DNA of 38,593 bases from NCBI GenBank assembly GCA_024400665.1, contig JAKSML010000014.1:1-38593 (forward strand). The letters are read 5' to 3'. This document shows positions 1 to 33,533 of the stretch, piece by piece. Origin of the DNA: Bacteroidales bacterium. Lineage in GTDB: Bacteria > Bacteroidota > Bacteroidia > Bacteroidales > P3. The notes under the pieces were generated by a model. It saw only the letters and a list, made by a program, of their open reading frames with translations, ran no database searches and was not told the DNA's origin. The translations under genes and the position numbers were made by a program. Positions within the stretch are counted from its first letter, which is position 1; each line of letters opens with the position of its first letter.

Positions 1-410
1 GCATCGGTTCCAGTGCTTTCTATGGTTGTAGCGGCATCACCTCGCTGACGCTGCCGAACTCGCTCACCAGCATCGGTTCTTATGCCTTCGCTGGCTGTAG
101 CGGCATCACCTCGCTGACTATGTCAAATTCGCTTACCAGCATCGGTTCCAGTGCTTTCTATGGTTGTAGCGGCATCACCTCGCTGACGCTGCCTAATTCG
201 CTCACCAGAATCGGCCCCAGTGCCTTCTCTGGCTGTAGCGGCATCACCTCGCTGACTATGTCAAATTCGCTTACCAGCATCGGTTCCAGTGCTTTCTATG
301 GTTGTAGCGGCATCACCTCGCTGACGCTGCCGAACACGCTGACCAGCATTAGTAGCTCTGCGTTCAATGGCTGTAGCGGCATCACTTCGCTGACGCTGCC
401 GGATGCCTTG
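1..410 (+). repeat. 69-bp LRR-coding tandem repeats with 138-bp higher-order unit
   Basis: The DNA coding for the LRR array repeats every 69 bp (23 codons). Two neighbouring units form a 138-bp dimer: positions 91-193 are identical base for base to 229-331 (103 bp). Near-identity at silent positions points to recent expansion of the array. The array continues off the left edge. Confidence 0.85.
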
Positions 411-1148
411 GATACGATTGGAGGGAGTGCCTTCGCCCGCTGTAGCGGACTGACAACGGTGTCGATTCCCCGAACGGTGAGATATATTGCTGGCGGAGCA
501 TTCGGGGAGTGCGAGGGACTGACGAGCGTGGATCTGCACGCCGACAGCTGCACCTATATGGGTGAGGACTATTACGGGGAGACTTATTCCGCTTTTTACC
601 ACTGCCCCAACCTCGCCACGCTGAATATTGACGAGAATGTGAAGAATATTCCCGCAGCAGCTTTTGCCGGCTGCACGGGATTGATGAGCCTGAGGGTGCC
701 GAGTTCGGTGGAGCGCATTGGCGACAGGGCTTTCTCGGACTGCTATAATATCAGCCGCATCGATATGCTGAGCGACGTTCCTCCTTCAATCATGGGGGGG
801 ACGTTCTATAACGTGGCTACGGCGGTGCCTATATGGGTGCCTTGCGGTGCTTCGGAGACGTATCGCAACGCGAGTTTCTGGAGCATGTTTATCAATTATC
901 ACGAGGACTGCGGCTCGGAGGGCATAGACCCCGCGGAGGCTGAGGGTTGCAGGATTGCGGCGGAGAGCGGCGTGCTGCGGATTGAGGGGGCTGCGGGCAA
1001 GTCTGTCCGCATCTTCGATATGGCAGGCAGGCTGCTGGTGTCGGAGGATGGCGCCCAGGAGTCGCAGCGCTTTGCGATGCCTGCGGGCGGAGTGTATCTG
1101 GTGCAGGTTGGCGAGGCTCCTGCCCAGAAAGTGGTCGTGGTGAAATAG
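1..1148 (+). CDS. BspA-like leucine-rich repeat surface protein, 5' truncated by window edge
   Basis: The reading frame is open from position 3, so the start lies outside the window; the ATG at 120 is internal to the repeats. The visible part is a string of about 23-residue LRR_5/BspA-type repeats with the pattern GITSLTLPNSLTSIGSSAF-YGCS. They are nearly identical at first and become degenerate after about position 400 (for example VKNIPAAAFAGCTGLMSLRV). After a linker rich in Cys and Gly, the last ~70 residues look like a T9SS type A sorting domain: a VRIFDMAGRLL strand, then GVYLVQVG, ending KVVVVK. BspA-like proteins are surface-exposed or secreted and in several species bind host or matrix proteins. 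The family call is firm; the ligand is unknown. No downstream partner gene follows on this strand. Confidence 0.88.
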   Translation, partial: IGSSAFYGCSGITSLTLPNSLTSIGSYAFAGCSGITSLTMSNSLTSIGSSAFYGCSGITSLTLPNSLTRIGPSAFSGCSGITSLTMSNSLTSIGSSAFYGCSGITSLTLPNTLTSISSSAFNGCSGITSLTLPDALDTIGGSAFARCSGLTTVSIPRTVRYIAGGAFGECEGLTSVDLHADSCTYMGEDYYGETYSAFYHCPNLATLNIDENVKNIPAAAFAGCTGLMSLRVPSSVERIGDRAFSDCYNISRIDMLSDVPPSIMGGTFYNVATAVPIWVPCGASETYRNASFWSMFINYHEDCGSEGIDPAEAEGCRIAAESGVLRIEGAAGKSVRIFDMAGRLLVSEDGAQESQRFAMPAGGVYLVQVGEAPAQKVVVVK

Positions 1149-13706: not shown

Positions 13707-14420
13707 ATGAAAAGACTCTTTCCTATCCTTCTCGCAGTCCTGATGACTCTCTCTTCCTGCAACCGCGTTCGCGAAGAGGTGATGCAAAAATACCCCGACG
13801 GCAAGCCTATGATCACCTTCCTGCTCAAAGGCTCGAAGAAAGACCCTACCCGCGTGGGCGAACGTATGTACTACGAAAACGGCCAGCTGCAATTCGAGAA
13901 GAAATTCTCGGGCAAACCCGAAGTGCCAGACAATGAATGGAGCTATTACTTTGACAACGGGCAGCTCTTCGCCTCGGGCGATTTCTCAAAGAACCATGAG
14001 TTCGGCAGCAACTGGACTTTCTTCAACCGCAATGGCAATCCCTACTACGATGGAAAGCTTGACTCGGTCTATGTAACAGACCTGGGCATGTTCGGCACCC
14101 CCTCGACGGTTGTTTTCTGCTCTGGGGTACACCAAGATGTAGTTCAATTCTACAGCAACTACACTGTCCGTAGCACCGAACGTCTCACCAACGGAGCAAG
14201 AAGCGGCCGCGTGTATTTCTACTTCCCCAACGGACGCACTCAGGTGGAAGCCAACTTCGACAACGGACAAGAGGACGGCCCCTATATCGTCTATCGCGAA
14301 AACGGCATACCCTACTACCAAGGCAACTACAGCCACGGTGAGCGCGTGGGCGTCTGGGAATTTTACGACGAAGAGGGAAACCTCGCTCATACGATGGACT
14401 ACAATAAAGCCAAGAAATAG
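13707..14420 (+). CDS. MORN-repeat lipoprotein (YwqK-like), first of a tandem pair
   Basis: The 237-residue product has a lipoprotein signal with lipobox LSSC (MKRLFPILLAVLMTLSSC). It is then made of MORN_2-type repeats: YPDGKPM, MYYENGQLQFEKKF, YYFDNGQLFASGDF, FYFPNGRTQVEANF, VYRENGIPYYQGNY and FYDEEGNLAHTMDY. Such proteins are often annotated as YwqK-family antitoxins, a label with little support when, as here, the protein is a lipoprotein. They are more likely cell-envelope binding proteins. The next gene, 11 bp downstream, is a paralog. No toxin-like gene is adjacent. Confidence 0.85.
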   Translation: MKRLFPILLAVLMTLSSCNRVREEVMQKYPDGKPMITFLLKGSKKDPTRVGERMYYENGQLQFEKKFSGKPEVPDNEWSYYFDNGQLFASGDFSKNHEFGSNWTFFNRNGNPYYDGKLDSVYVTDLGMFGTPSTVVFCSGVHQDVVQFYSNYTVRSTERLTNGARSGRVYFYFPNGRTQVEANFDNGQEDGPYIVYRENGIPYYQGNYSHGERVGVWEFYDEEGNLAHTMDYNKAKK

Positions 14421-14431
14421 TCGCTATAGCA

Positions 14432-15112
14432 ATGAAGCCATCTCTGCTTTTCATCCTCGCAGCATCAACGCTCTTCTCGTCCTGCATCCTCTTTGGCGGC
14501 AAAACGACAGACACATACCCTGACGGAAGCCCCAAAAGCGTCACCCAGATAACGGGGATGCGCAATTTTGAGTTGTGCCAGGTTGAGCGCATGTACTACG
14601 AGAACGGACTGATAAAGTACGAGAAACGATTCTACGGGAACGATAAAGTTCCCGATGGAATATGGAACTTCTACTACGATAACGGCCAAATATTTGCCTC
14701 GGCCGACTTCTCGGAGAATCATACTGAGGGCTCCAAATGGATGCTCTATAGTAATAACGGCGAATACATACACGACAGAAACAGTTATGACTCTGTCTGC
14801 ATTGCCAAGAAAGATGATTTCGATGTGCCTATCAAAGTGATTTTCTATTCCGGCAATAAATCGGAGGTCGTCATGTTCGATGAAACGCACAACATACAGC
14901 GTGTGCAGCACTTCACAGACCAGGAGCCCGACGGACCAGACATCACATATTACCCCAATGGGCAGGCAAAAAGCATCTCGTTCTTCAGCAACGGACAGAA
15001 GGCCAGCCAGACTCTCACTTTCCGAAAGAATGGTATGCCCTACGGCAGGAATAGCACCAACATCAGCACACCATCCTCTCGTTTGGGAGACTCATCATAC
15101 CTATATCACTGA
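14432..15112 (+). CDS. MORN-repeat lipoprotein, second of a tandem pair
   Basis: This 226-residue protein is a paralog of the preceding one. It has a lipoprotein signal with FSSC and the same repeat order: [63 protein letters not shown]. It also keeps the same insert between the third and fourth conserved repeats ([13 protein letters not shown] here, LDSVYVTDLGMF in the first). The C-terminus diverges into a Ser-rich tail. The sequence divergence shows an old duplication. It ends 5 bp before cca. Confidence 0.83.
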
Positions 15113-16552: not shown

Positions 16553-17467
16553 ATAAAACTAACGTTCATACTCGGTCCAACAGCTGTCGGCAAAACATCC
16601 TACGCTATTGAATTGGCACAAAAGCTCAACACGGAGATTGTGTCGTGCGATTCTCGTCAGTTTTATAAAGAGCTGAACATCGGTGTTGCAAGGCCCTCGG
16701 AAGAAGAGCTTGCCGCCGTTCCGCACCATTTCATTGCCTGTCGCTCTGTGAACGACCCCTACAATGTATTCACATACGAACAAGAAGCCTTATCTTGCAT
16801 AGATAGACTATTCATGACACACGAAAACGTCATTGCCGTAGGCGGCAGCGGACTCTATATCGAGGCTTTGAGCAATGGAATATCAATACTCCCAGACCCT
16901 ACCCCAGAACTTAGAAACGAGCTACAGCAGAAGCTCAAAAACGAAGGTGTAGAGAGCCTCGCCTCTATGCTCAAACAACTTGACCCTGAATACTATAATC
17001 AAGTCGATCTTGCCAACGGTGTGAGGATTCAACGAGCCTTGGAAGTCTGTATTATGACAGGCGAGCCATACAGCCAGATTATCAAACAGCCCAAACAGCA
17101 GAGACCTTTCGAGATAGAGACCATTGTGCTGCAACGAGACCGTGACGACCTACGCCGACGCATAGACCTGCGCGTTGACCAAATGTTTAAAGATGGATTA
17201 GAGGCGGAAGTCCGCAATCTGTATGGATTAAGACATCTAACGCCGCTCAACACCGTTGGTTATAAAGAATTTTTCAACTTATGGGCAAGCGAAGATACTA
17301 ACGAGCCTTGCAATAGCGCCAATATGGACAACCAAGCCCGCAACCTATCCGCCCAACAGATAGAAGAGGTGTCAAATGCCATAAAACTCAACACATGGCA
17401 CTATGCAAAAAAGCAAATCACCTGGTTCAAAAAGAAAGCTAATCAATCAAAAATTATAACACTATGA
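16553..17467 (+). CDS. miaA: tRNA dimethylallyltransferase, apparent AUA start
   Basis: MiaA transfers a dimethylallyl group to A37 of tRNAs that read UNN codons. The first ATG in frame (16613) would remove the P-loop. Upstream, the frame encodes KLTFILGPTAVGKTSYAIEL and is closed by a TAA at 16535-16537. The only codon that gives a normal N-terminus is ATA at 16553, which yields M-KLTFILGPTAVGKT. The 304-residue product then has DSRQFYKELNIGVARPS, VGGSGLYIEAL, NGVRIQRALEV and a typical C-terminus (NTWHYAKKQITWFKKK). The start is 10 bp after the cca stop. Either AUA is used as a start or the base is a sequencing error for ATG. The gene overlaps the next one by ATGA. Confidence 0.9.
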   Translation: MKLTFILGPTAVGKTSYAIELAQKLNTEIVSCDSRQFYKELNIGVARPSEEELAAVPHHFIACRSVNDPYNVFTYEQEALSCIDRLFMTHENVIAVGGSGLYIEALSNGISILPDPTPELRNELQQKLKNEGVESLASMLKQLDPEYYNQVDLANGVRIQRALEVCIMTGEPYSQIIKQPKQQRPFEIETIVLQRDRDDLRRRIDLRVDQMFKDGLEAEVRNLYGLRHLTPLNTVGYKEFFNLWASEDTNEPCNSANMDNQARNLSAQQIEEVSNAIKLNTWHYAKKQITWFKKKANQSKIITL

Positions 17468-18402
17468 GAAAACACATTATCACTTTCTGTCTCATTCTGA
17501 CAGCAGCAGTCACACTCTGGGCACAAACGCCCACTGTCCGCATCAACATCATGGATATAGCCGAAACCTCCTACACAGCATCATTTCAACAAAATGATTG
17601 CAGTCAGTACTACATCTACTCCGATGTGGTTGGAGGCATGGACATGTGGATTATGATGATGGGCAGCGTCGAAAACATTGTCAGTTCATGGGGTATTGCT
17701 TGTACGTCTGACACTATTCACACTTGGACGGAGATGCAGCCCGGCACTGATTATGTGATTTACGCACTTGCAACAAATGGCAGCACTTCCATTCTTTACA
17801 CAGACACGCTTCGCACACTTTCTGCTGGCGGATCTGGCGAGAGTGTAATCACATTGTCTGTCGAAGACATCACCGACAACAGCGTCAAAACAATCTCCGA
17901 ACCCAACGACCAGACCCTTCTCTTCAAAGACTTCCTCATTGAAAAGGCCTCTTTTGACACATTAGACATCGACACCGTGACCAACTGGCTCAAAGATGAC
18001 CCCTACGTTCATTATGAAACCGACACTTGGACATGGCTTGACCTCAAGCCTGGTACGCCCTACTATCTTTGCGCAATCGGCATGAATGGCGACAGCGTCT
18101 GGGGTGAAATGTCGAAATTAGAATTTAGCACTACTGGCGAACCTGTGTCCATCACACTGAACAGCGACAACAGTATCAAGGTATATCCCAATCCTGCCAG
18201 CAACTACATCAATATTGAAAACCTCTCTGCACAAAGCCACGTGGTGCTGACCGATATGCAGGGGAAACAGATTGAATCTTTCAACACTTCTAATTCCAGT
18301 CTTACTATCAACACCTTGGCTCTATCCCGCGGCAGCTATCTGCTTCAGATATTCAACAATCCTGCCACGGCTCCTATCGTAAAGACCATCATCCTTCAAT
18401 AA
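17464..18402 (+). CDS. Small secreted protein with T9SS type A sorting domain
   Basis: The 312-residue product has a signal peptide (MRKHIITFCLILTAAVTLWAQ). Two fibronectin-III-like beta domains follow; each ends in the pattern W-x-[DE][LM]-[KQ]PGT-x-Y (TWTEMQPGTDYVIYALA near 88-104, TWTWLDLKPGTPYYLCAIG near 190). The last ~75 residues form a T9SS type A C-terminal domain: YPNPASNYINI, VVLTDMQGKQI, LSRGSYLLQIF, ending KTIILQ. It should be exported through T9SS and cleaved or anchored at the surface. Its start overlaps the miaA stop (ATGA), so it is translationally coupled to a tRNA-modification gene, probably by chance of operon layout. Its ligand is unknown. Confidence 0.85.
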   Translation: MRKHIITFCLILTAAVTLWAQTPTVRINIMDIAETSYTASFQQNDCSQYYIYSDVVGGMDMWIMMMGSVENIVSSWGIACTSDTIHTWTEMQPGTDYVIYALATNGSTSILYTDTLRTLSAGGSGESVITLSVEDITDNSVKTISEPNDQTLLFKDFLIEKASFDTLDIDTVTNWLKDDPYVHYETDTWTWLDLKPGTPYYLCAIGMNGDSVWGEMSKLEFSTTGEPVSITLNSDNSIKVYPNPASNYINIENLSAQSHVVLTDMQGKQIESFNTSNSSLTINTLALSRGSYLLQIFNNPATAPIVKTIILQ

Positions 18403-23567: not shown

Positions 23568-23575
23568 TACTTTTG
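23568..23575 (+). promoter_or_regulatory. Candidate -7 box for the T9SS triplet
   Basis: TACTTTTG matches TAnnTTTG perfectly, about 125 nt before the first of the three tandem genes. No clear TTTG is found at -33. The second and third genes have only a 51-bp spacer each, without a -7 box, so they probably depend on this promoter. Confidence 0.5.
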
Positions 23576-23699: not shown

Positions 23700-26600
23700 A
23701 TGACGAAGAAGATAGAGATACTGCTGGTTTTGCTGGCACTGATGACAGGCCTACAGGCACAGAACGACACGGTGAACGGATATGTCTGCTCACACGGGGT
23801 GGATACGGCTATGTGGATTACGTTCGACAATCCAGTCACAATCAATACCCAAAGCAACTTTGATTGGAACGACCCAATCGCTATCGGCTTCGACCTCCTA
23901 TACTTCGGCCAGGCCAGAAGGTGGGTGAAGCTTTCCCGCCATGGCACTGTGACTTTCGAGCACGAATCTCCATCGAGCTATAACCATTATATGCTATGGC
24001 CCAACACGCTCTTTCCCTTTGGCATCCTGATGGACTGGCACGCTGCCGCCTCCTACTGGAAATACCAAACCTTCGGCACGCCTGGCAACAGGGTTCTGGT
24101 CTTCGAGTATTGCGGAATTATTCATAGCGACGGCAGTGTGATAATATGCACCTACCAGATTCATCTGCGCGAGGCCGACAACAGCATTCATTTCGTGTAT
24201 AAGCAGTCGGCTCCTGGAGCTTTTTCCAGAATCCTCATGACAGAATCAGGAGAGGCTATCTCTATAGCAAACCACCATGGCGTAGGGTATTTCTGGCGGA
24301 ATGACGACCAGCCCTGGCCTGGGGATGGCCACTACTACTCCTTTGTGCCCCAGCCATGCCTGCCGCGCGTGAACGCCAATATCCGTTACAACAGTCCCAC
24401 CTCTGTCACGCTCTTTTTGCAGCCAATCAATTCTCAGACCGTTGCCAACCAGATTGAGTACGGTCCCACAGGCTTCATCCGAGGAACGGGGACCCACATC
24501 AGCACCACGCTGAACAAGATAGACATCGACGACTTCAACTCCGAGGAGGGCTTCGACTTCTACATCACGCCACTCTGCGCCGACAGTTCGAAGGGCATCA
24601 CAAAGGTGATACGGCATAGGGCCTCATGCAGCCTCACGGACGCCACTTCCAACCTGATAAACTATTGGGACTTGCAGCAGACCGATGTGACCTGCAGCTT
24701 TGGATCATTATCGACATCAGGCACGAGCATAGGCATCATCGACTATGGAGACAGCAGCCAAGAGTCGCGCCACACCGTCCATTCCGACACGTCCGAGACC
24801 GACCCATACACCTTGGGCGAGCTGCACACCGTCCCCGAAGGGCACTGCTATTCCGTGCGCCTCGGCAACATGCTCTCTGGTGGCGAAAGAGAGCGCATCA
24901 CCTACCACCTGCACGTCGATACCAACAGCTACGACTTGCTCCTGCTGCGCTACGCCATCGTAGAAGAAGACCCCAACCATCCCGCCACCCTCCAGCTATT
25001 CTTCACCTTCGGCATCTACGACACTAACGGCGGCGCCTTCAACGCTTGCTACTATGCCAACTTCGTAGCAGGCGACTTCTCGGGATGGAACAGGTCTTAC
25101 AATGGAAACACGCGATTAGTGTGGCACAACTGGCAGATTATGGGCGTCGATCTCAGCCCCTTGCACGGCATGGACATAAACGTTGCCTTGGACAATGCCG
25201 ACTGCGCTGCTGGCGGACATTTCGGCTACAGCTACTTCACCCTCGAAAGCGCCACAAAACACATCAGGGCAGACTATTGCGGAGCCACTGACACCAATAT
25301 TCTCCGCGCCCCCAAAGGCTTCACCTACAGATGGTACCGCGACGGCGACAGCAGAACGACCCTCAGCACAGCCGACTCGCTCGTCGTCACCGACGGAGAT
25401 CGTTACTTCTGCGAAGCCACCTACCTTCTGCGAAACACTTCGTGCCACATCCTCCTCTCCTCCTACGGAGGCTCGCGCTACCCTGTGGCGGACTTCGACT
25501 TCGAGCCACAGAACGTCTGTGGAAACGTGTGCCAGCTCATCAACCGCAGCCTTGTGGCTCGCGACAGCCTCCGCACCCAGATCACCTCAACGCCATGCAA
25601 CAGCTACCTCTGGCGCTTCGACGACGGCACCACATCCTCCCTCATCAGCCCCACCCACCGCTTCACCCCCGGCACCCACGCTGTCACCCTCTACGCCATG
25701 CTTGCTGACGGGCAATGTATAGACTCTGTGACGAAGTCCATAGATATTGTGACCGTTGCCGATACCTCCATCAGCATGCAGACCTGCTCGTCCGACACGC
25801 TCTTCTTCGGCGATTCCGCCTACACCGTCACAGGCGACTACATCTGCCCAAGCACAGAAAACGGCTGCACCCTCTTCACCCACCTACACCTCACTGTGCT
25901 GCCAGACTACCACTTCCACCATGCCGACACCTTTCAAAACGGACAGTCCTACACTTGGAGAGGCAGCACTTACCGACGCCCCGGCCTCTACCAAAACCGT
26001 TTCGCCACTACGGCAGGCTGCGACAGCATCTACGCCCTCAGCCTCAGCTGCATAGAACAGCACGACACCCTCGTCTGCCAAGACGACCTCCCCCTCTATT
26101 GGCATGGACGCCACTTCGACACCGAAGGCACCGACACCCTCGTCTTTCCCATTCACGCGGGAGCCGACAGCATCGTCCTCATCACCCTCCGCACAAGGAA
26201 GCACCCAGATTATGCCACATCCTCACTGCTCCACTGCGACGGCGTTCCCTACTATTCCATCGCCATCCCCGACTCCATGATCTACACCTTCCGCACTGAC
26301 CCCCTCGACCCGCAGATCGACTCACTCAGCCGCATCATACCCTCCATGCCCACCCTCCTCATCATCCAGTCGAACTATCCCAGCGAACCCACGTGTCCCT
26401 CCTCCGACACCCTCATACTTGAGCCTCTGCGACCTCTGGTGGCACATCTCGAAGTGCAGCCAAAATGGATTGATGAGAGCGAGTCCGACATCACAGCCAC
26501 CGACCGAAGCAAGGGCAACCTCTGGAGAGAGTGGTACATCAACAACGAGCTGCAAGAGAGCCAAGAGTCCTCCATCAGATATCGCTCTGACCTCCAGGGC

Positions 26601-26951
26601 GACAGCGTGACCATCATGCTGGTCATAGGCATCGATGAATGCACCGACACCGCATACACCACCATCTATATCCGTCACCAAGACCTCCTCTGGTTTCCCA
26701 ACGTCTTCACCCCCGACCTCCTCACCAACAACCTATTCCGCGCCTACGGCATCAACATCCGCGACTACGACCTGCAGATCTTCACCCGCTGGGGCGAGCG
26801 CATCTTCCGCACCCACGACATGGCAGAAGGCTGGGACGGCACCGCCCGCGGCATCCGTCTCCCCCAAGGCACCTACGCCTACGTCTGCACCTATACCACC
26901 CCCACCGACGAGAAGAAAAGGATGTATGGCACAGTCACCCTCATACGTTGA
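23700..26951 (+). CDS. Multidomain secreted protein with T9SS type B sorting domain, paralog 1 of 3
   Basis: The 1083-residue product has a signal peptide of ~21 residues (MTKKIEILLVLLALMTGLQA). By eye the domains are: a beta-rich N-terminal domain (about 22-215, with NDTVNGYVCSHGVD and FGTPGNRVLVFEY); an FN3-like domain (218-305); a jelly-roll-like domain (315-520, with WDLQQTDVTC and FGYSYFTLES); and an Ig-like domain (525-585, YRWYRDGD...YFCEATY). After these come a PKD-like domain (592-690, YLWRFDDGTTSS...HRFTPGTHAVTLYA) and Cys-containing adhesin-type modules (690-880, GCDSIYALSLS). The C-terminus is a CHU_C/type B sorting domain (998-1083, WFPNVFTPDLLTNNLF...IFTRWGERIF...GWDG). It should be surface-exposed or secreted through T9SS. 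The ligand is unknown. Residues about 683-869 are coded by DNA private to this copy. Confidence 0.88.
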   Translation: MTKKIEILLVLLALMTGLQAQNDTVNGYVCSHGVDTAMWITFDNPVTINTQSNFDWNDPIAIGFDLLYFGQARRWVKLSRHGTVTFEHESPSSYNHYMLWPNTLFPFGILMDWHAAASYWKYQTFGTPGNRVLVFEYCGIIHSDGSVIICTYQIHLREADNSIHFVYKQSAPGAFSRILMTESGEAISIANHHGVGYFWRNDDQPWPGDGHYYSFVPQPCLPRVNANIRYNSPTSVTLFLQPINSQTVANQIEYGPTGFIRGTGTHISTTLNKIDIDDFNSEEGFDFYITPLCADSSKGITKVIRHRASCSLTDATSNLINYWDLQQTDVTCSFGSLSTSGTSIGIIDYGDSSQESRHTVHSDTSETDPYTLGELHTVPEGHCYSVRLGNMLSGGERERITYHLHVDTNSYDLLLLRYAIVEEDPNHPATLQLFFTFGIYDTNGGAFNACYYANFVAGDFSGWNRSYNGNTRLVWHNWQIMGVDLSPLHGMDINVALDNADCAAGGHFGYSYFTLESATKHIRADYCGATDTNILRAPKGFTYRWYRDGDSRTTLSTADSLVVTDGDRYFCEATYLLRNTSCHILLSSYGGSRYPVADFDFEPQNVCGNVCQLINRSLVARDSLRTQITSTPCNSYLWRFDDGTTSSLISPTHRFTPGTHAVTLYAMLADGQCIDSVTKSIDIVTVADTSISMQTCSSDTLFFGDSAYTVTGDYICPSTENGCTLFTHLHLTVLPDYHFHHADTFQNGQSYTWRGSTYRRPGLYQNRFATTAGCDSIYALSLSCIEQHDTLVCQDDLPLYWHGRHFDTEGTDTLVFPIHAGADSIVLITLRTRKHPDYATSSLLHCDGVPYYSIAIPDSMIYTFRTDPLDPQIDSLSRIIPSMPTLLIIQSNYPSEPTCPSSDTLILEPLRPLVAHLEVQPKWIDESESDITATDRSKGNLWREWYINNELQESQESSIRYRSDLQGDSVTIMLVIGIDECTDTAYTTIYIRHQDLLWFPNVFTPDLLTNNLFRAYGINIRDYDLQIFTRWGERIFRTHDMAEGWDGTARGIRLPQGTYAYVCTYTTPTDEKKRMYGTVTLIR
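25359..25445 (+). repeat. 87-bp identity block, paralog 1 = paralog 3
   Basis: Identical to 31941-32027. Paralog 2 differs here (it reads GTGTCCGATGCAGCAACA where the others read GTCACCGACGGAGATCGT). The block codes for the end of the Ig-like domain. Confidence 0.85.
25448..25744 (+). repeat. 297-bp identity block, paralog 1 = paralog 2
   Basis: Identical to 28733-29029 at every base, silent sites included. Paralog 3 differs at many positions over the same stretch (for example VPQNACGN for EPQNVCGN). It covers the PKD-like domain. Confidence 0.88.
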
Positions 26952-27049
26952 TACTTGATTAGTCAAGAACAGAAAGGGCACCAGCACAGAGTTTAAACGA
27001 CCATGATAAAAAAAACGCACATACTATTCATTCTGTTAGTCTTGGCAGC
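26306..27049 (+). repeat. 744-bp identity block across gene end, spacer and next gene start (copy 1)
   Basis: Identical to 29591-30334 (offset 3285). It covers the last ~215 codons of paralog 1 including the sorting domain, the whole 51-bp spacer, and the first 47 bp of paralog 2 (signal peptide). The first mismatches are at 26305 (T versus A) and 27050 (A versus G). Confidence 0.9.
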
Positions 27050-30000
27050 AACTGTCACGGCGCAGAACGACACGGTGAACGGATACGTCTGCTCGCACGG
27101 GGTGGATACGTCAATGTGGATTACGCTTGACAATCCGACCACCACCATTATGAACTACAGCTCCCCCATACATATCGGATTCGACTTCCTATACTTCGGC
27201 CAAGCCATGAGGTGGGTGTGGCTTTCCTACATAGGTACTATAACTTTTGAGGACGAACAACCGACGAGATATAGTTATTATACATGGCCCCATACGCTCT
27301 TCCCCTTTGGAATCATAAATATGGGGGGCAACATCTACTGGAAATACCAAACCTTCGGCACGCCCGGCGACAGGATTTTGGTCTTCGAGTATATCGATGG
27401 TGCTTATGGTGGCACCAATATAAATTGCACCTACCAGATTCAGCTGCGCGAAGCCGACAACAGCATTCATTTCGTGTATGGGCTGCCGTCGGTACTACAA
27501 AGCTATTCATCAGGAATTTCCTTAACAGGATTAGAAGAAGCCATCACTATGGTAAACCACCATGCCATAGAGGGTTTCTGGCTATCTGCCAACAACCAGC
27601 CTTGGCCAGGGGAGGGACACTACTACTCCTTCGTGCCCCAGCCATGCCTGCCGCGCGTGAACGCCAGCATCCAACTCAACAGCCCCACTTCTGTCACGCT
27701 CTTTCTGCAGCCTGCCAACCCGCAGGCCGTCGCCTGCCATATAGAATATGGCCCCGCAGGCTTCGCCCGAGGAACGGGAACGCTTATCAGCACCACGCTA
27801 AGCCAGATAGACATTGACACGCTCAACTCCGGGGAGGACTACGACTTCTACATCACGCCATTATGCGCCGACAGTTCGGAGGGCATCACAAAGATGATAC
27901 GGCATAGGGCCGCATGCAGTCTCACGGATGCCGATTCCAACCTGATAAACTACTGGGATCTGCGGCAAAACAATGTAACCTGCCGCCATGGGTCCCTTTA
28001 TCAATCGAGCATACCCACAGGCGTCATCGATTACGGATACAGCAGCCATACGTCGCGCCACACCGTCCATTCCGACACTGCCGAGACCGACCCGCGCACC
28101 TTGGGCGGACTGCACACCGTCCCCAAAGGACACTGCTATTCAGTGCGTCTCGGCAACTGGATGATAGGTGGCGAAAGAGAGAGCATCACATACCGCCTGC
28201 ACGTTGATACCAACAGCTACGACCTGCTCCTGCTGCACTACGCCATCGTAGAACAGGATCCAAGCCACGACTCCGCCAGCCAGCCATTCTTCACCTTCGG
28301 CATCTACGACACCAACGGCAGCCTCGTCAGTTCCTGCTACTATGCCAACTTCGTAGCAGGCGACCTCTCTGGTTGGAACAGCATAGACTACCGTGGAGAG
28401 CCGTTAGTGTGGCACGACTGGCAGACCGTGGGTGTCGATCTCAGTCCCTTGCACGGCATGGACATAGATGTCATCTTAGACAATGCCGACTGCACCGGCG
28501 GTGCTCATTTCGGTTACAGCTACTTCACCCTCGAAAGCGGCACCAAACACATCAAGGCAGACCGCTGCGGAGCTGCGGACGGCAACATTCTCCGCGCCCC
28601 GAAAGGCTTTGCCTACAGATGGTACCGCGAGGGCGACAACACCACCCTCAGCACGGCCGACTCGCTCGTCGTGTCCGATGCAGCAACATACTTCTGCGAA
28701 GCCACCTACCTTCTGCAAAATACATCGTGCAGCATCCTCCTCTCCTCCTACGGAGGCTCGCGCTACCCTGTGGCGGACTTCGACTTCGAGCCACAGAACG
28801 TCTGTGGAAACGTGTGCCAGCTCATCAACCGCAGCCTTGTGGCTCGCGACAGCCTCCGCACCCAGATCACCTCAACGCCATGCAACAGCTACCTCTGGCG
28901 CTTCGACGACGGCACCACATCCTCCCTCATCAGCCCCACCCACCGCTTCACCCCCGGCACCCACGCTGTCACCCTCTACGCCATGCTTGCTGACGGGCAA
29001 TGTATAGACTCTGTGACGAAGTCCATAGACATTGTGACCGTTGCCGACACCTCCATCAGTGTGCAGCTATGCTCGCCCGACACCCTCTTCTTCGGCGACT
29101 CCGCCTATACCGTCTCGGGCAACTATACCTACACGGAAACCCAACTCGGATGCACGACCATCACACATCTGAACCTCACCCTTCTGCCGAGCTACAACAT
29201 ATCCCAAGCCGACACCTTCCTGCTTGGTCAGACCTATCTCTGGCACGGAACAGCCTACCAGCGTCCCGGCCTCTACACCACGCCCCTCCGCACCCTCCTC
29301 GGCTGCGACAGCATCCTCACCCTCCGCCTCAGCAGCATCGAGCGGCACGACACCCTCGTCTGCCATGACGACCTCCCTCTCTTTTGGCACGACCACGCCA
29401 TGACCGCCGAAGGCACCGACACCCTCAACCTCACCACCCACGCAGGAACCGACAGCCTCGTTGTGCTTGTTCTCAGCACACGGCAACGCCATGACCACAT
29501 CACCGACCCACAGCTCCACTGCCAAGGCACCCCCTATTACAGTATTCCACTCTCCGACACCCTCCGCTACACCTTCCGCACCGACCCCTACGACCCGCAG
29601 ATCGACTCACTCAGCCGCATCATACCCTCCATGCCCACCCTCCTCATCATCCAGTCGAACTATCCCAGCGAACCCACGTGTCCCTCCTCCGACACCCTCA
29701 TACTTGAGCCTCTGCGACCTCTGGTGGCACATCTCGAAGTGCAGCCAAAATGGATTGATGAGAGCGAGTCCGACATCACAGCCACCGACCGAAGCAAGGG
29801 CAACCTCTGGAGAGAGTGGTACATCAACAACGAGCTGCAAGAGAGCCAAGAGTCCTCCATCAGATATCGCTCTGACCTCCAGGGCGACAGCGTGACCATC
29901 ATGCTGGTCATAGGCATCGATGAATGCACCGACACCGCATACACCACCATCTATATCCGTCACCAAGACCTCCTCTGGTTTCCCAACGTCTTCACCCCCG

Positions 30001-30236
30001 ACCTCCTCACCAACAACCTATTCCGCGCCTACGGCATCAACATCCGCGACTACGACCTGCAGATCTTCACCCGCTGGGGCGAGCGCATCTTCCGCACCCA
30101 CGACATGGCAGAAGGCTGGGACGGCACCGCCCGCGGCATCCGTCTCCCCCAAGGCACCTACGCCTACGTCTGCACCTATACCACCCCCACCGACGAGAAG
30201 AAAAGGATGTATGGCACAGTCACCCTCATACGTTGA
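27003..30236 (+). CDS. Multidomain secreted protein with T9SS type B sorting domain, paralog 2 of 3
   Basis: The 1077-residue product has the same domain order as paralog 1, with a different signal peptide (MIKKTHILFILLVLAATVTA) shared with paralog 3. It is a mosaic. The PKD-like region and the last ~215 codons are base-identical to paralog 1. Parts of the jelly-roll-like domain (28206-28386) and of the module region (29184-29368, GCDSILTLRLSS) are base-identical to paralog 3. The N-terminal beta domain (residues 22-215) is the most divergent part, with short indels such as MNYSSPIHIGFDFLYFG here and NSQNLYQWNAPVPILIGFDF in paralog 3. The type B sorting domain spans about 992-1077. It starts 51 bp after paralog 1 with no promoter of its own visible. 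Confidence 0.88.
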   Translation: MIKKTHILFILLVLAATVTAQNDTVNGYVCSHGVDTSMWITLDNPTTTIMNYSSPIHIGFDFLYFGQAMRWVWLSYIGTITFEDEQPTRYSYYTWPHTLFPFGIINMGGNIYWKYQTFGTPGDRILVFEYIDGAYGGTNINCTYQIQLREADNSIHFVYGLPSVLQSYSSGISLTGLEEAITMVNHHAIEGFWLSANNQPWPGEGHYYSFVPQPCLPRVNASIQLNSPTSVTLFLQPANPQAVACHIEYGPAGFARGTGTLISTTLSQIDIDTLNSGEDYDFYITPLCADSSEGITKMIRHRAACSLTDADSNLINYWDLRQNNVTCRHGSLYQSSIPTGVIDYGYSSHTSRHTVHSDTAETDPRTLGGLHTVPKGHCYSVRLGNWMIGGERESITYRLHVDTNSYDLLLLHYAIVEQDPSHDSASQPFFTFGIYDTNGSLVSSCYYANFVAGDLSGWNSIDYRGEPLVWHDWQTVGVDLSPLHGMDIDVILDNADCTGGAHFGYSYFTLESGTKHIKADRCGAADGNILRAPKGFAYRWYREGDNTTLSTADSLVVSDAATYFCEATYLLQNTSCSILLSSYGGSRYPVADFDFEPQNVCGNVCQLINRSLVARDSLRTQITSTPCNSYLWRFDDGTTSSLISPTHRFTPGTHAVTLYAMLADGQCIDSVTKSIDIVTVADTSISVQLCSPDTLFFGDSAYTVSGNYTYTETQLGCTTITHLNLTLLPSYNISQADTFLLGQTYLWHGTAYQRPGLYTTPLRTLLGCDSILTLRLSSIERHDTLVCHDDLPLFWHDHAMTAEGTDTLNLTTHAGTDSLVVLVLSTRQRHDHITDPQLHCQGTPYYSIPLSDTLRYTFRTDPYDPQIDSLSRIIPSMPTLLIIQSNYPSEPTCPSSDTLILEPLRPLVAHLEVQPKWIDESESDITATDRSKGNLWREWYINNELQESQESSIRYRSDLQGDSVTIMLVIGIDECTDTAYTTIYIRHQDLLWFPNVFTPDLLTNNLFRAYGINIRDYDLQIFTRWGERIFRTHDMAEGWDGTARGIRLPQGTYAYVCTYTTPTDEKKRMYGTVTLIR
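28206..28386 (+). repeat. 181-bp identity block, paralog 2 = paralog 3
   Basis: Identical to 31500-31680; paralog 1 differs (for example VEEDPNHPATLQLF versus VEQDPSHDSASQPF). It codes for part of the jelly-roll-like domain. Confidence 0.87.
29184..29368 (+). repeat. 185-bp identity block, paralog 2 = paralog 3
   Basis: Identical to 32481-32665. Paralog 1 is strongly diverged at the same place (YHFHHADTFQNGQSYTWRG versus YNISQADTFLLGQTYLWHG). It codes for the adhesin-type module region. Confidence 0.87.
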
Positions 30237-30334
30237 TACTTGATTAGTCAAGAACAGAAAGGGCACCAGCACAGAGTTTAAACGACCATGATAAAAAAAA
30301 CGCACATACTATTCATTCTGTTAGTCTTGGCAGC
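29591..30334 (+). repeat. 744-bp identity block across gene end, spacer and next gene start (copy 2)
   Basis: Second copy of 26306-27049. It covers the end of paralog 2, the 51-bp spacer and the first 47 bp of paralog 3. Confidence 0.9.
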
Positions 30335-33300
30335 GACTGTCACGGCGCAGAACGACACAGTGAACGGATACGTCTGCTCGCATGGGGTGGATGCGTCTAT
30401 GTGGATTACGCTCGACAATCCGACCACCCTTAATTCCCAAAACCTATACCAATGGAATGCCCCTGTCCCTATCCTTATCGGCTTCGATTTCCAATACTTC
30501 GGCCAAGCCAAGAGGTGGGTGAGGCTTTCCCCCTTTGGTACTGTCACTTTTGAGGGCGAACCTCCGCTGAACTATAGTTATCACACATGGCCCCATACGC
30601 TCTTCCCCTTTGGATCCATAATGTTGTATGGGGGCTCCTCCTTCTGGGAATACCAAACCTTTGGCACGCCTGGCGACAGGATTTTGGTCTTCGAGTATAT
30701 CGATGGTGCTTTTGGTGACACCTGTGCCTACCAGATTCAGCTGCGCGAGGCCGACAACAGCATTCGTCTCGTGTACGGGTCGCCGTCGGCACAAATCTAT
30801 TCGTCAAGAATTTCCTTAACAGATTTGGAAGAGGCCATCTCTATGGTAAACCACCATGCCGTAGGAGGTTTCTGGCTATATGGCGACCAGCCTTGGCCAG
30901 GGGAGGGGCACTACTACTCATTCGTGCCCCAGCCATGCCTGCCGCGTGTGAACGCCAGCATCCGACTCAACAGTCCCACCTCTATCACGCTCTTTCTGCA
31001 GGCTGCCAACCCGCAGGCCGTCGCCTGTCATATAGAATATGGTCCCGCAGGCTTCGCCCGAGGGGCGGGAACGCTTATCAGCACCACGCTAAGCCAGATA
31101 GACTTTGACACGCTCAACTCCGAGGAGGGTTACGACTTCTACGTCACGCCACTCTGCGCCGACAGTTCTGAGGGCAGCACAAAGATGATACGGCATAGGG
31201 CAGCATGCAGTCTCACCGACGCCACCTCCAACCTGATAAACTACTGGGACCTGCGGCAAACTAATGTGACCTGCCGTTTTGGAACATTAGGCTCGGTCTC
31301 AGACCTGCACACAGCCATCATCGACTACGGAGACAGCAGCCATACGTCGCGCCACACCGTCCATTCCGACACAGCCGAGACCGACCCGCGCACCTTGGGC
31401 GTGCTGCACACCGTCCCCGAAGGTCACTGCTACTCAGTGCGTCTCGGCAACTGGATGACAGGTAGCGAAAGAGAGAACATCACCTACCGCCTGCACGTCG
31501 ATACCAACAGCTACGACCTGCTCCTGCTGCACTACGCCATCGTAGAACAGGATCCAAGCCACGACTCCGCCAGCCAGCCATTCTTCACCTTCGGCATCTA
31601 CGACACCAACGGCAGCCTCGTCAGTTCCTGCTACTATGCCAACTTCGTAGCAGGCGACCTCTCTGGTTGGAACAGCATAGGCTACCTTGGCGAACCGTTA
31701 GTGTGGCACGACTGGCAGGCCGTGGGGGTCGATCTCAGCCCCTTGCACGGCATGGACATAGATGTCATCTTAGACAATGCCGACTGTGCTGGCGGCGCTC
31801 ATTTCGGCTACAGCTACTTCACCCTCGAAAGTGCCACCAAGCACATCAGGGCAGACTATTGCGGAGCCACCAGCGCCAACATCCTCCGCGCCCCCAAAGG
31901 CTTTGCCTACAGATGGTATCGTGACGGCGACATCGCCACCACCCTCAGCACAGCCGACTCGCTCGTCGTCACCGACGGAGATCGTTACTTCTGCGAAGCC
32001 ACCTACCTTCTGCGAAACACTTCGTGCAGCATCCTCCTCTCCTCCTACGGAGGCTCACGCTACCCTGTTGCAGACTTCGACTTCGTGCCGCAGAATGCCT
32101 GTGGAAATGTGTGCCAGCTGGTCAACCGCAGCCTTGTGGCTCGCGACAGCCTCCACACCCAGATCACTACTACGCCCTGCGACAGCTATCTCTGGCACTT
32201 CGACGACGGAACCACATCCTCCCTCATCAGCCCCACCCACCGCTTCACCCCCGGCACCCACACTGTCACCCTTTACGCCATGCTCGCTGATGGGCAATGC
32301 GCCGACTCAGTGACCAAGACCGTAAACATTGTGACCGTTGCCGACACCTCCATCAGCATGCAAACCTGCTCGCCCGACACCCTCTTCTTCGGCGACTCCG
32401 CCTACACCGTCTCGGGCAACTATACCTACACGGGAACCCAACTCGGATGCACAAGTATCACACACCTCAACCTCACTGTGCTGCCGAGCTACAACATATC
32501 CCAAGCCGACACCTTCCTGCTTGGTCAGACCTATCTCTGGCACGGAACAGCCTACCAGCGTCCCGGCCTCTACACCACGCCCCTCCGCACCCTCCTCGGC
32601 TGCGACAGCATCCTCACCCTCCGCCTCAGCAGCATCGAGCGGCACGACACCCTCGTCTGCCATGATGACCTCCCTCTCTCTTGGCACGACCACACCATGA
32701 CCGCCGAAGGGACCGACACCCTCAACCTCACCGCCCACGCAGGAGCCGACAGCCTCGTTGTGCTTGCTCTCAGCACACGGCAACGCCCTGACCACATCAC
32801 CGCCCCACAGCTCCACTGCCAAGGCACCCCTTATTACAGTATTCCACTCTCCGACACCCTCCGCTACACCTTCCGCACCGACCCCCTCGACCCGCAGATC
32901 CTCTCTCTCAGCCGCATCACACCCTCCATCCCCACACTCCTCATCATCCAGACCGAACACTCCGACGAGCCCTCGTGCCCCGTCACCGACACGTTCCTCC
33001 TCGACCCGCTGCGGCCAGTCGTGGCACGTCTCGAAGTGCAGCCTCAATGGATTGAAGAAGGCCAGTCCGAAATCACAGCCACAGACCGAAGCAAAGGCAT
33101 CCAATGGCGAGAGTGGTACATCAACGACGAGCTGCAAGAAAGCCAAGATCCCACCATCCTCTATCATTCCGACCTCCAAGGCGACAGCGTGACCGTCATG
33201 CTGGTCATAGGCATCGACCAATGCACAGACACCGCCATCGCCGCCATCCCTATCCGCCGCCAAAACCTCCTCTGGTTTCCAAACGTCTTCACCCCCGACC

Positions 33301-33533
33301 TCCTCACCAACAACCTATTCCGCGCCTACGGCACCAACATCCGCGACTACGACCTGCAGATCTTCACCCGCTGGGGCGAACGCATCTTCCGCACCCACGA
33401 CATGGCAGAAGGGTGGGACGGCACCACCCACGGCATCCGCCTCCCCCAAGGCACCTACGCCTACGCCTGCGCCTACACCACCTCCGCCAACGAGAAGAAA
33501 AGAATATATGGCACAGTCACCCTCATACGCTGA
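30288..33533 (+). CDS. Multidomain secreted protein with T9SS type B sorting domain, paralog 3 of 3
   Basis: The 1081-residue product has the same signal peptide and domain order as paralog 2. Its segment from about 32895 to 33240 (residues ~870-984, just before the sorting domain) differs from the other two: SLSRITPSIPTLLIIQTEHSD versus SLSRIIPSMPTLLIIQSNYPS, and QPQWIEEGQSEITATDRS versus QPKWIDESESDITATDRS. The type B sorting domain (about 996-1081) is again nearly the same (WFPNVFTPDLLTNNLFRAYG). It is the last of the tandem set. Downstream is a 339-bp gap with a word-repeat and then the alpha-oxoamine synthase gene. Confidence 0.88.
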   Translation: MIKKTHILFILLVLAATVTAQNDTVNGYVCSHGVDASMWITLDNPTTLNSQNLYQWNAPVPILIGFDFQYFGQAKRWVRLSPFGTVTFEGEPPLNYSYHTWPHTLFPFGSIMLYGGSSFWEYQTFGTPGDRILVFEYIDGAFGDTCAYQIQLREADNSIRLVYGSPSAQIYSSRISLTDLEEAISMVNHHAVGGFWLYGDQPWPGEGHYYSFVPQPCLPRVNASIRLNSPTSITLFLQAANPQAVACHIEYGPAGFARGAGTLISTTLSQIDFDTLNSEEGYDFYVTPLCADSSEGSTKMIRHRAACSLTDATSNLINYWDLRQTNVTCRFGTLGSVSDLHTAIIDYGDSSHTSRHTVHSDTAETDPRTLGVLHTVPEGHCYSVRLGNWMTGSERENITYRLHVDTNSYDLLLLHYAIVEQDPSHDSASQPFFTFGIYDTNGSLVSSCYYANFVAGDLSGWNSIGYLGEPLVWHDWQAVGVDLSPLHGMDIDVILDNADCAGGAHFGYSYFTLESATKHIRADYCGATSANILRAPKGFAYRWYRDGDIATTLSTADSLVVTDGDRYFCEATYLLRNTSCSILLSSYGGSRYPVADFDFVPQNACGNVCQLVNRSLVARDSLHTQITTTPCDSYLWHFDDGTTSSLISPTHRFTPGTHTVTLYAMLADGQCADSVTKTVNIVTVADTSISMQTCSPDTLFFGDSAYTVSGNYTYTGTQLGCTSITHLNLTVLPSYNISQADTFLLGQTYLWHGTAYQRPGLYTTPLRTLLGCDSILTLRLSSIERHDTLVCHDDLPLSWHDHTMTAEGTDTLNLTAHAGADSLVVLALSTRQRPDHITAPQLHCQGTPYYSIPLSDTLRYTFRTDPLDPQILSLSRITPSIPTLLIIQTEHSDEPSCPVTDTFLLDPLRPVVARLEVQPQWIEEGQSEITATDRSKGIQWREWYINDELQESQDPTILYHSDLQGDSVTVMLVIGIDQCTDTAIAAIPIRRQNLLWFPNVFTPDLLTNNLFRAYGTNIRDYDLQIFTRWGERIFRTHDMAEGWDGTTHGIRLPQGTYAYACAYTTSANEKKRIYGTVTLIR

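What the first reader, a model, noticed from the sequence alone, without database searches (positions are those of the whole stretch)
23700..33533. Tandem triplet of T9SS type B surface proteins with a three-way mosaic of perfectly identical DNA blocks
Three ~3.25-kb genes in a row encode proteins of the same architecture. Their identity is patchy and switches partner. Paralogs 1 and 2 share 25448-25744 = 28733-29029 (297 bp) and 26306-27049 = 29591-30334 (744 bp). Paralogs 2 and 3 share 28206-28386 = 31500-31680 (181 bp) and 29184-29368 = 32481-32665 (185 bp). Paralogs 1 and 3 share 25359-25445 = 31941-32027 (87 bp). In each case the third gene differs. Silent positions are identical too, so selection on protein cannot explain it. 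Repeated gene conversion or unequal crossing-over among the copies is the simplest reading. The effect would be to shuffle N-terminal and module segments behind a constant sorting domain, a possible surface-diversification system.
Basis: partly seen in the sequence, partly recalled or inferred. Interest (0 to 1): 0.85.

Follow-up and report, generated by a model that had tools for sequence, protein, structure and literature searches.

The report
Tandem surface-protein genes copying each other
Three neighbouring genes for type IX-secreted surface proteins in a gut-type Bacteroidales bacterium have overwritten patches of one another by gene conversion, a known process, and some relatives show the same thing happening to the tail that sorts such proteins while their front halves stay anciently different.

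Summary
Three intact tandem genes (23700-26951, 27003-30236, 30288-33533) encode T9SS type B (CHU_C) cargo; all five stated blocks are exact. Shuffle tests reject chance. The 744-bp block runs through a stop codon, 51 bp of intergenic DNA and 47 bp of the next gene, so selection on protein cannot explain it; ectopic gene conversion is the simplest reading. Two corrections: the first kilobase shows no clear exchange among the three genes, and dN/dS is below 1 wherever computable, so a surface-diversification system is not demonstrated.

The wider finding lies outside the window. In this genus, 10 of 21 adjacent type B gene pairs share a nearly identical 3' end; dispersed copies, tested in two genomes, do not. 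In the window's gene family six other genomes hold tandem pairs whose fronts fall into types older than the species; in three of the six the sorting domains are nonetheless sisters within a genome (concerted evolution, as in H. pylori homA/homB), in two they are not, in one it is unclear. Another array of this genome contains a chimera.

Limits: the genomes compared are largely MAGs and no second assembly of this species was found. A new variant of a known kind.

The parts
23700..26951 (+). g1: T9SS type B cargo gene, 1083 aa
   Evidence: ORF; CHU_C PF13585 and PKD_4 over cut-off; TIGR04131 over cut-off
27003..30236 (+). g2: T9SS type B cargo gene, 1077 aa
30288..33533 (+). g3: T9SS type B cargo gene, 1081 aa
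26306..27049 (+). 744-bp tract, copy 1: g1 codon 869 to stop, 51-bp intergenic, g2 codons 1-16 (first 47 bases)
   Evidence: identical to 29591-30334
29591..30334 (+). 744-bp tract, copy 2: g2 codon 863 to stop, 51-bp intergenic, g3 first 47 bases
25448..25744 (+). 297-bp g1=g2 block, copy 1 (g1 codons 583-682, around the PKD domain)
28733..29029 (+). 297-bp g1=g2 block, copy 2 (g2 codons 577-676)
28206..28386 (+). 181-bp g2=g3 block, copy 1 (g2 codons 402-462)
31500..31680 (+). 181-bp g2=g3 block, copy 2 (g3 codons 405-465)
29184..29368 (+). 185-bp g2=g3 block, copy 1 (g2 codons 728-789)
32481..32665 (+). 185-bp g2=g3 block, copy 2 (g3 codons 732-793)
25359..25445 (+). 87-bp g1=g3 block, copy 1 (g1 codons 554-582)
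31941..32027 (+). 87-bp g1=g3 block, copy 2 (g3 codons 552-580)
23568..23575 (+). possible -7 promoter element TACTTTTG (Bacteroidales TAnnTTTG, consensus recalled); none found around the two gene junctions
   Evidence: weak, a pattern match only

Best explanation
The triplet is a tandem expansion of a modular T9SS type B surface protein, kept partly uniform by recurrent ectopic gene conversion (RecA-type homologous recombination is inferred) between neighbouring copies. Shown: DNA-identical patches that switch partner, ignore a gene border and include silent and intergenic positions; the same kind of pattern in about half of the adjacent type B cargo pairs examined in the genus, and not between dispersed copies in the two genomes tested; in three of six relatives with tandem pairs of the same family, front parts that follow ancient types and sorting domains that follow the genome. 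Inferred: the three genes are co-transcribed; conversion is most frequent where copies stay similar enough to pair (often the sorting end, sometimes the signal-peptide start or middle modules); diverged N-terminal parts drop below the similarity needed and so persist as separate types. The likely effect is that different outward-facing parts keep one common secretion and PorP/SprF-docking tail. Whether that is selected or a by-product is open.
For: Blocks exact and beyond chance. g1-g2 dS is 0 in two tracts against 0.37-0.67 in the other segments. The 744-bp tract includes 51 intergenic bases; in G142 the exact run also goes 130 bp past the stop. Of 21 adjacent same-strand CHU_C pairs in this genome and ten others of the genus, 10 have the last 88 codons at least 88% identical in DNA; non-adjacent pairs reach at most 78% (49 pairs, own genome) and 70% (167 pairs, G142). 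In the window's gene family, N-part trees reject pairing the two copies of one genome (AU p 3.6e-9 in G122, 0.0012 in G142, 1.6e-37 in G017), while sorting-domain trees pair them (support 96/96, 100/99, 83/95) (also 97/95, 100/99, 93/93). Contig C20 pair: 1202 bp near the 3' end identical, N-part of copy 1 belongs with another lineage (AU p 4.7e-6 against pairing with copy 2). SprA and a PorP-family protein are encoded in this genome.
Against: The records are largely metagenome assemblies; exact long repeats can be smoothed or mis-phased by assemblers, and no second assembly of this species was found. 11 of the 21 adjacent pairs show no such homogenisation, though 6 of these are orthologues of one old pair. 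In the window's own family 3 of 6 other genomes with tandem pairs do not show within-genome sorting-domain sisters: in G143 and G071 (80% and 71% identity) that pairing is rejected, AU p 0.008 each, and in G021 one copy's domain groups first with the single copy of G027. Of 9 C20-like loci with two copies, the similar stretch is 3' in 3, 5' or middle in 4, broad in 1 and absent in 1, so a 3' bias is not universal. At sites with the same amino acid, dispersed sorting domains of this genome share codons at a median of 67% but up to 90%, close to the lowest homogenised pairs (91%).
Confidence: 0.85

Rival explanations
1. Assembly artefact: repeats collapsed or mis-phased in a short-read MAG, giving false identity, false phase or a false copy number.
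For: Incomplete genome (64.7% complete, 46 contigs). Orthologous genes in other genomes run into contig ends inside the gene (G062 C16 and C58, G081 C14, G122 C27, G020 C9). The 744-bp and 297-bp repeats allow an alternative path that swaps the 561-bp segment between them, or a loop walked more than once (reasoned, not tested). A long-read study of P. gingivalis found some long repeats to be misassembled loci (PMC5771137, passages seen).
Against: Copies that elsewhere differ by about 20% should not be merged into 100% tracts unless they really share that DNA (reasoned). Similar tracts recur in other genomes with strongly diverged neighbouring parts. The contig breaks themselves suggest that copies share long near-identical DNA.
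Confidence: 0.08
2. Unequal crossing-over or one recent duplication created the triplet, and the identical blocks are what has not yet diverged.
For: Copy number differs at related loci (2 in G122 and G142, 1 in G109 and G062 near shared neighbours; 2 in G021, 1 in G027). The 744-bp tract spans a gene junction, as a crossover joint would.
Against: Within 100 bp or so past the junction g2 and g3 fall to 72-83%, and g1-g2 dS jumps between 0 and 0.37-0.67 within one gene; one event gives a uniform age. In three relatives front parts are older than the species while tails are young.
Confidence: 0.12
3. A dedicated antigenic-variation system (programmed recombination, diversity-generating retroelement or silent cassettes) diversifies these surface proteins.
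For: Surface-protein architecture; mosaic; a front-end swap in the C20 pair.
Against: All three genes are intact and closely spaced. Pfam scans of 25 window ORFs found no recombinase or reverse transcriptase; no reverse transcriptase in this incomplete genome nor in G142 or G122, one in G021. dN/dS below 1. No clear exchange of N-parts inside the triplet.
Confidence: 0.05
4. Purifying selection alone keeps the sorting domain similar among T9SS cargo.
For: In most distant tandem pairs the sorting domain is moderately more alike than the rest. In G143 and G071 the domains are 80% and 71% alike without grouping by genome, which selection could explain.
Against: For the window tracts silent and intergenic bases are identical. 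Dispersed copies in the same genome reach only 70-78% DNA identity. In G122, G142 and G017 orthologues of other species are less alike than neighbours.
Confidence: 0.02

Closest known systems
Helicobacter pylori homA/homB and babA/babB outer-membrane protein genes (concerted evolution of segment 3 by gene conversion; PMC2795765, passages seen)
   Same: Paralogous surface-protein genes whose 3' segment groups by strain while the 5' segment groups by gene type; interpreted there as gene conversion.
   Different: Different protein family, no T9SS (recalled). Here the copies are side by side, the shared tail is a T9SS type B sorting domain, the comparison is between species, only 3 of 6 genomes show it in this family, and a tract crosses a gene junction.
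Porphyromonas gingivalis surface-protein domain rearrangements and allelic exchange (Kgp, HagA and others; PMC5266723, passages seen)
   Same: T9SS cargo in Bacteroidales; mosaic variants attributed to domain rearrangement, exchange between strains and gene conversion.
   Different: Concerted evolution of neighbouring type B genes is not described in the passages seen.
Type B CTD proteins P. gingivalis PG1035 and Flavobacterium johnsoniae SprB, bound to PorP/SprF (PMC9143113, abstract seen; PMC11205867, passages seen)
   Same: Same type of sorting domain and presumably the same anchoring route.
   Different: No tandem array or gene conversion mentioned in what was seen; N-terminal modules not compared.

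Membership tests
T9SS type B (CHU_C, TIGR04131) cargo | C-terminal type B sorting domain over curated cut-off | tested here: met
   PF13585 45-49 bits (cut-off 27) in all three; TIGR04131 36-37 bits (cut-off 35) in all three
T9SS type B (CHU_C, TIGR04131) cargo | Host encodes the T9SS translocon and a PorP-type partner | tested here: met
   SprA TIGR04189 2370 bits; PorP TIGR03519 195 bits
T9SS type B (CHU_C, TIGR04131) cargo | Protein reaches the cell surface | not testable with these tools
   needs cell fractionation or microscopy
Gene conversion between paralogs | Tracts identical at silent and non-coding sites inside otherwise diverged copies, beyond chance | tested here: met
   g1-g2 tracts strongest, g2-g3 blocks weak on silent sites alone
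Gene conversion between paralogs | Conflicting trees for segments of the same genes | tested here: met
   Relatives. Triplet: codons 20-560 group g2+g3 (98/93; 95/93) and the sorting domain groups g1+g2 (identical). With fewer outgroups g2+g3 had only 78/79 and g1+g2 was not rejected, p 0.216; AU tests on the 297-bp and 744-bp blocks did not run
Concerted evolution (homA/homB-like) in the window's gene family | Within-genome copies closer than cross-species orthologues in one segment only | tested here: inconclusive
   Met in 3 of 6 other genomes with tandem pairs (G122, G142, G017: sorting domain 88-95% within, 59-83% across species; N-part the reverse). Not met in G143 and G071. Unclear in G021 (93% within, 94% to G027)
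Silent-cassette antigenic variation (pilE/pilS, vlsE type; recalled) | One expressed locus plus silent partial copies | tested here: not met
   three full-length ORFs, each starting with a signal-peptide-like stretch; expression itself not testable
Diversity-generating retroelement | Reverse transcriptase in the genome | tested here: not met
   no PF00078 match in the own genome (64.7% complete), G142 or G122; one in G021

The most novel reading that the evidence does not exclude
In this Bacteroidales genus, neighbouring type B cargo genes form a modular display system: gene conversion keeps renewing one common secretion/PorP-docking tail (and sometimes the signal-peptide start), while ancient alternative N-terminal types are kept by balancing selection and are occasionally spliced onto the resident tail, as in the C20 chimera.
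Probability: 0.19. Interest if true: 0.66.

Novelty: new variant of a known kind. Interest (0 to 1): 0.48.

Why it matters
It links a mechanism known from pathogen adhesins to the type IX secretion cargo of gut-type Bacteroidales, and gives a set of natural cases, with counter-examples, in which the sorting tail is homogenised while the displayed part is not. That makes testable whether a tail co-evolves with its PorP-type anchor, and whether conversion is limited by similarity or guided by selection. It also warns that short-read assemblies may break or mis-phase such arrays.

Tried and rejected
Unequal crossing-over as sole cause: rejected on uneven silent divergence. Selection on the sorting domain as sole cause: rejected for the window tracts on silent and intergenic identity and on the dispersed control. 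Diversity-generating retroelement: rejected for lack of a reverse transcriptase, with the caveat of 64.7% completeness. Positive selection by dN/dS: none above 1; averaged counts are insensitive. Weak NCBIfam hits of g1 to D-ala-D-ser ligases (at most 17.4 bits against cut-offs of 520 or more) are taken as chance. A profile search of the PDB: the 60 of 137 matches shown are FN3 stretches (about positions 208-342 of the profile) or PKD-like stretches (644-695). A first genome-contig scan with the triplet alone found no relative; a second with family members gave 76 named loci, best 80 kept of 347.

Literature: T9SS with tandem, paralog, sorting domain and recombination gave 0 papers. T9SS with gene conversion gave 5, of which I searched three for passages; only PMC5266723 bore on the question. 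Searches listed 15 of 140, 15 of 25, 2 of 2 and 8 of 90 papers; I saw no report of this pattern among their titles and abstract starts. The library lacks most subscription journals.

Controls with limits: adjacent non-CHU_C paralogs, 0 of 8 with an exact run of 50 bp or more, against 10 of 34 CHU_C rows with 100 bp or more; the set is small, the loci were fetched around CHU_C genes, and the CHU_C rows include at least one re-fetched duplicate. The longest-match column contains self-matches where the downstream flank of one gene is the next gene; one search replaces it, but its C10 row is out of register by 3 bases, so use there. In the first tree of the family I had left out the pairs of G143 and G071, which are less alike; one search adds them, and the result is against a general rule.
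Full report
WHAT IS THERE. The window is a whole contig (C6) of a 1.54-Mb, 46-contig, 64.7%-complete genome. The closest named relatives of the three proteins are Bacteroidales MAGs, several from sheep, goat, red deer and water buffalo (forestomach where the record names the organ), and one is Candidatus Colimorpha merdihippi; further down the list come other Bacteroidota. The genome itself is unnamed. Three intact ORFs lie in a row with 51-bp gaps. Each has a type B sorting domain over both curated cut-offs, and a PKD_4 domain; a profile of 26 family members matches FN3 domains at about position 236-320. The genome encodes SprA and a PorP-family protein.

THE OBSERVATION. Every block is exact at the stated coordinates. 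Identity in 90-bp bins shows g2 and g3 as the closest pair over much of the gene, except in two stretches where g1 and g2 are identical and g3 is 75-96%. Site-shuffling rejects chance for the g1-g2, g1-g3 and g2-g3 blocks; on silent codons alone the g1-g2 runs stay extreme, the g1-g3 block is at P=0.015 and the g2-g3 blocks are weak (0.04, 0.23). Looking at g2-g3 differences only, both g2-g3 gaps exceed chance. Silent divergence g1-g2 is 0 in two tracts and 0.37-0.67 in the other segments.

THE KEY DETAIL. The 744-bp tract is not confined to a gene: it covers the last 215 codons and stop of g1 (g2), the 51-bp intergenic stretch and the first 47 bases of g2 (g3). Beyond those 47 bases g2 and g3 are 96% alike for some 50 bases and then 72-83%, with silent divergence 0.25 over the N-domain. 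A single crossover would not leave that; a conversion tract does. In the first 1.5 kb there is no long g1-g2 or g1-g3 run; one five-codon silent g1-g3 run at columns 1002-1059 has P=0.015 without correction. So clear N-terminal shuffling is not seen inside the triplet. dN/dS is below 1 in every segment where it can be computed, highest (0.43-0.59) in the N-terminal part.

IS IT SPECIAL TO THIS LOCUS? No. In the same genome two other tandem pairs show diverged fronts and identical 3' stretches: contig C10 (460 bp exact) and C20 (1202 bp exact); the C13 pair does not. In this genome and ten others of the genus I compared 21 adjacent same-strand CHU_C pairs. Five of the ten were chosen because they had relatives of g2, five by assembly quality; one of the ten (G016) showed no pair; the listing was truncated, and one further close pair in G109 was not fetched. 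In 10 of 21 the last 88 codons are at least 88% identical in DNA; of the 11 others, 6 are orthologues of one old pair. As control, non-adjacent sorting domains in the same genome reach at most 78% (49 pairs, 11 of 14 domains of the own genome) and 70% (167 pairs, 19 of 23 domains of G142); at sites with the same amino acid they share codons at a median of 67% and 50%, maximum 90% and 79%, against 91-100% in the homogenised pairs of these two genomes.

CONCERTED EVOLUTION IN THE SAME FAMILY, IN PART. Relatives of g2 occur in 17 of 120 genomes of the genus, this one included, at E 1e-120 or better; apart from the triplet the listed matches are 33-48% identical. Six other genomes have two in tandem in that list. 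A tree of codons 20-560 puts the two copies of G122, G142, G017 and G021 into two old types; holding the two copies of a genome together is rejected in G122, G142 and G017 (AU p 3.6e-9, 0.0012, 1.6e-37); G021 was not tested, but its copies lie in different well-supported clades. In the tree of the sorting domain the copies of G122, G142 and G017 are sisters. In G021 the two domains are 93% alike, but the first groups with the single copy of the close relative G027, so conversion may predate their split, or G027 may have lost a copy. The pairs of G143 and G071, added, go the other way: their N-parts also fall into two old types (AU p 2.4e-35 and 0.00026 against pairing), but their sorting domains (80% and 71%) are not sisters within a genome (AU p 0.008 each). 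So the pattern holds in three of six. In G142 the exact run goes 130 bp past the stop codon. Copy number differs between species near shared neighbours: two in G122 and G142, one in G109 and G062; two in G021, one in G027.

A CHIMERA IN ARRAY C20. Relatives of the C20 genes occur in 62 of 119 genomes, this one included, at E 1e-150 or better. In the four close genomes with a pair (this one, G006, G142, G143) codons 560-929 are nearly identical within a genome, against 66-85% between this genome and G142 in the same columns. In the N-part tree copy 1 of this genome joins G100 and not copy 2 (AU p 4.7e-6), while its 3' part is almost identical to copy 2 (and pairing it with G100 there is rejected, p 0.0006). 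The pairs of G006 and G142 are sisters in both parts, and G143's first copy lacks its N-part, so only one pair shows an ancient front on a young tail. Of nine C20-like loci with two copies (two close, seven distant) the similar stretch is at the 3' end in three, 5' or middle in four, broad in one and absent in one. So conversion is patchy in place and not tied to the sorting domain.

ARTEFACT. Several orthologous genes run into contig ends inside the gene, including two contigs of G062 that both stop at query residue 517. Short-read assemblers do this when copies share long near-identical DNA; it suggests that the identity is real and warns that copy number and phase in any one assembly are uncertain. 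The 561-bp piece between the 297-bp and 744-bp repeats could be swapped between g1 and g2, and the loop could be walked more than once (reasoned).

MECHANISM AND MEANING. Best reading: homologous recombination repeatedly copies patches between neighbours. Where neighbours remain similar this keeps them alike; where they have drifted apart, it stops. Type B proteins may anchor by binding their PorP-like partners (PMC9143113, abstract; PMC11205867, passages), so a shared tail behind different fronts would let neighbours use one anchor; this is inference. The closest described case is H. pylori homA/homB, whose segment 3 groups by strain and segment 1 by gene (PMC2795765, passages). In T9SS cargo, P. 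gingivalis domain rearrangement and allelic exchange are known (PMC5266723, passages). I found no report of tandem type B cargo under concerted evolution in the searches, which cover open-access papers only and were partly seen as capped lists.

Noticed in passing
window 3-469: 69-nt tandem repeats, 76-95% identical to the first copy, in a BspA-type leucine-rich-repeat gene (LRR_5, DUF6383) that is open at the contig start.
   Followed up: partly
L052 19770-19937 (own contig C10 end): About four copies of a roughly 42-bp repeat directly after the second C10 cargo gene; the contig ends inside them.
   Followed up: no
window 13707-15112: Two adjacent MORN-repeat proteins (237 and 226 aa), paralogous at 51% DNA identity with no long identical run.
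   Followed up: partly
window 17464-18402: A gene with the other T9SS sorting domain (Por_Secre_tail) directly after a gene with an IPP transferase domain.
   Followed up: no
L214 (G062:C16), L215 (G062:C58), L216 (G081:C14), L218 (G122:C27): Contigs that end inside C20-type cargo genes, two of them at the same residue, as expected where copies share a near-identical 3' part.
   Followed up: partly
L099, L102-L106: An old, conserved tandem pair of type B cargo genes (about 1080 and 1190-1240 aa) in six of the genomes examined, with sorting domains only 46-55% alike: adjacent but not homogenised.
   Followed up: partly
L094 (G143:C44), L095 (G071:C19): Tandem pairs of the window's family with two old N-part types but sorting domains that do not group by genome: counter-examples that ask why some neighbours convert and others do not.
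   Followed up: partly
G020:C184:780-1985: A cargo-gene relative with an in-frame TAA inside the match, perhaps a decayed copy.
   Followed up: no
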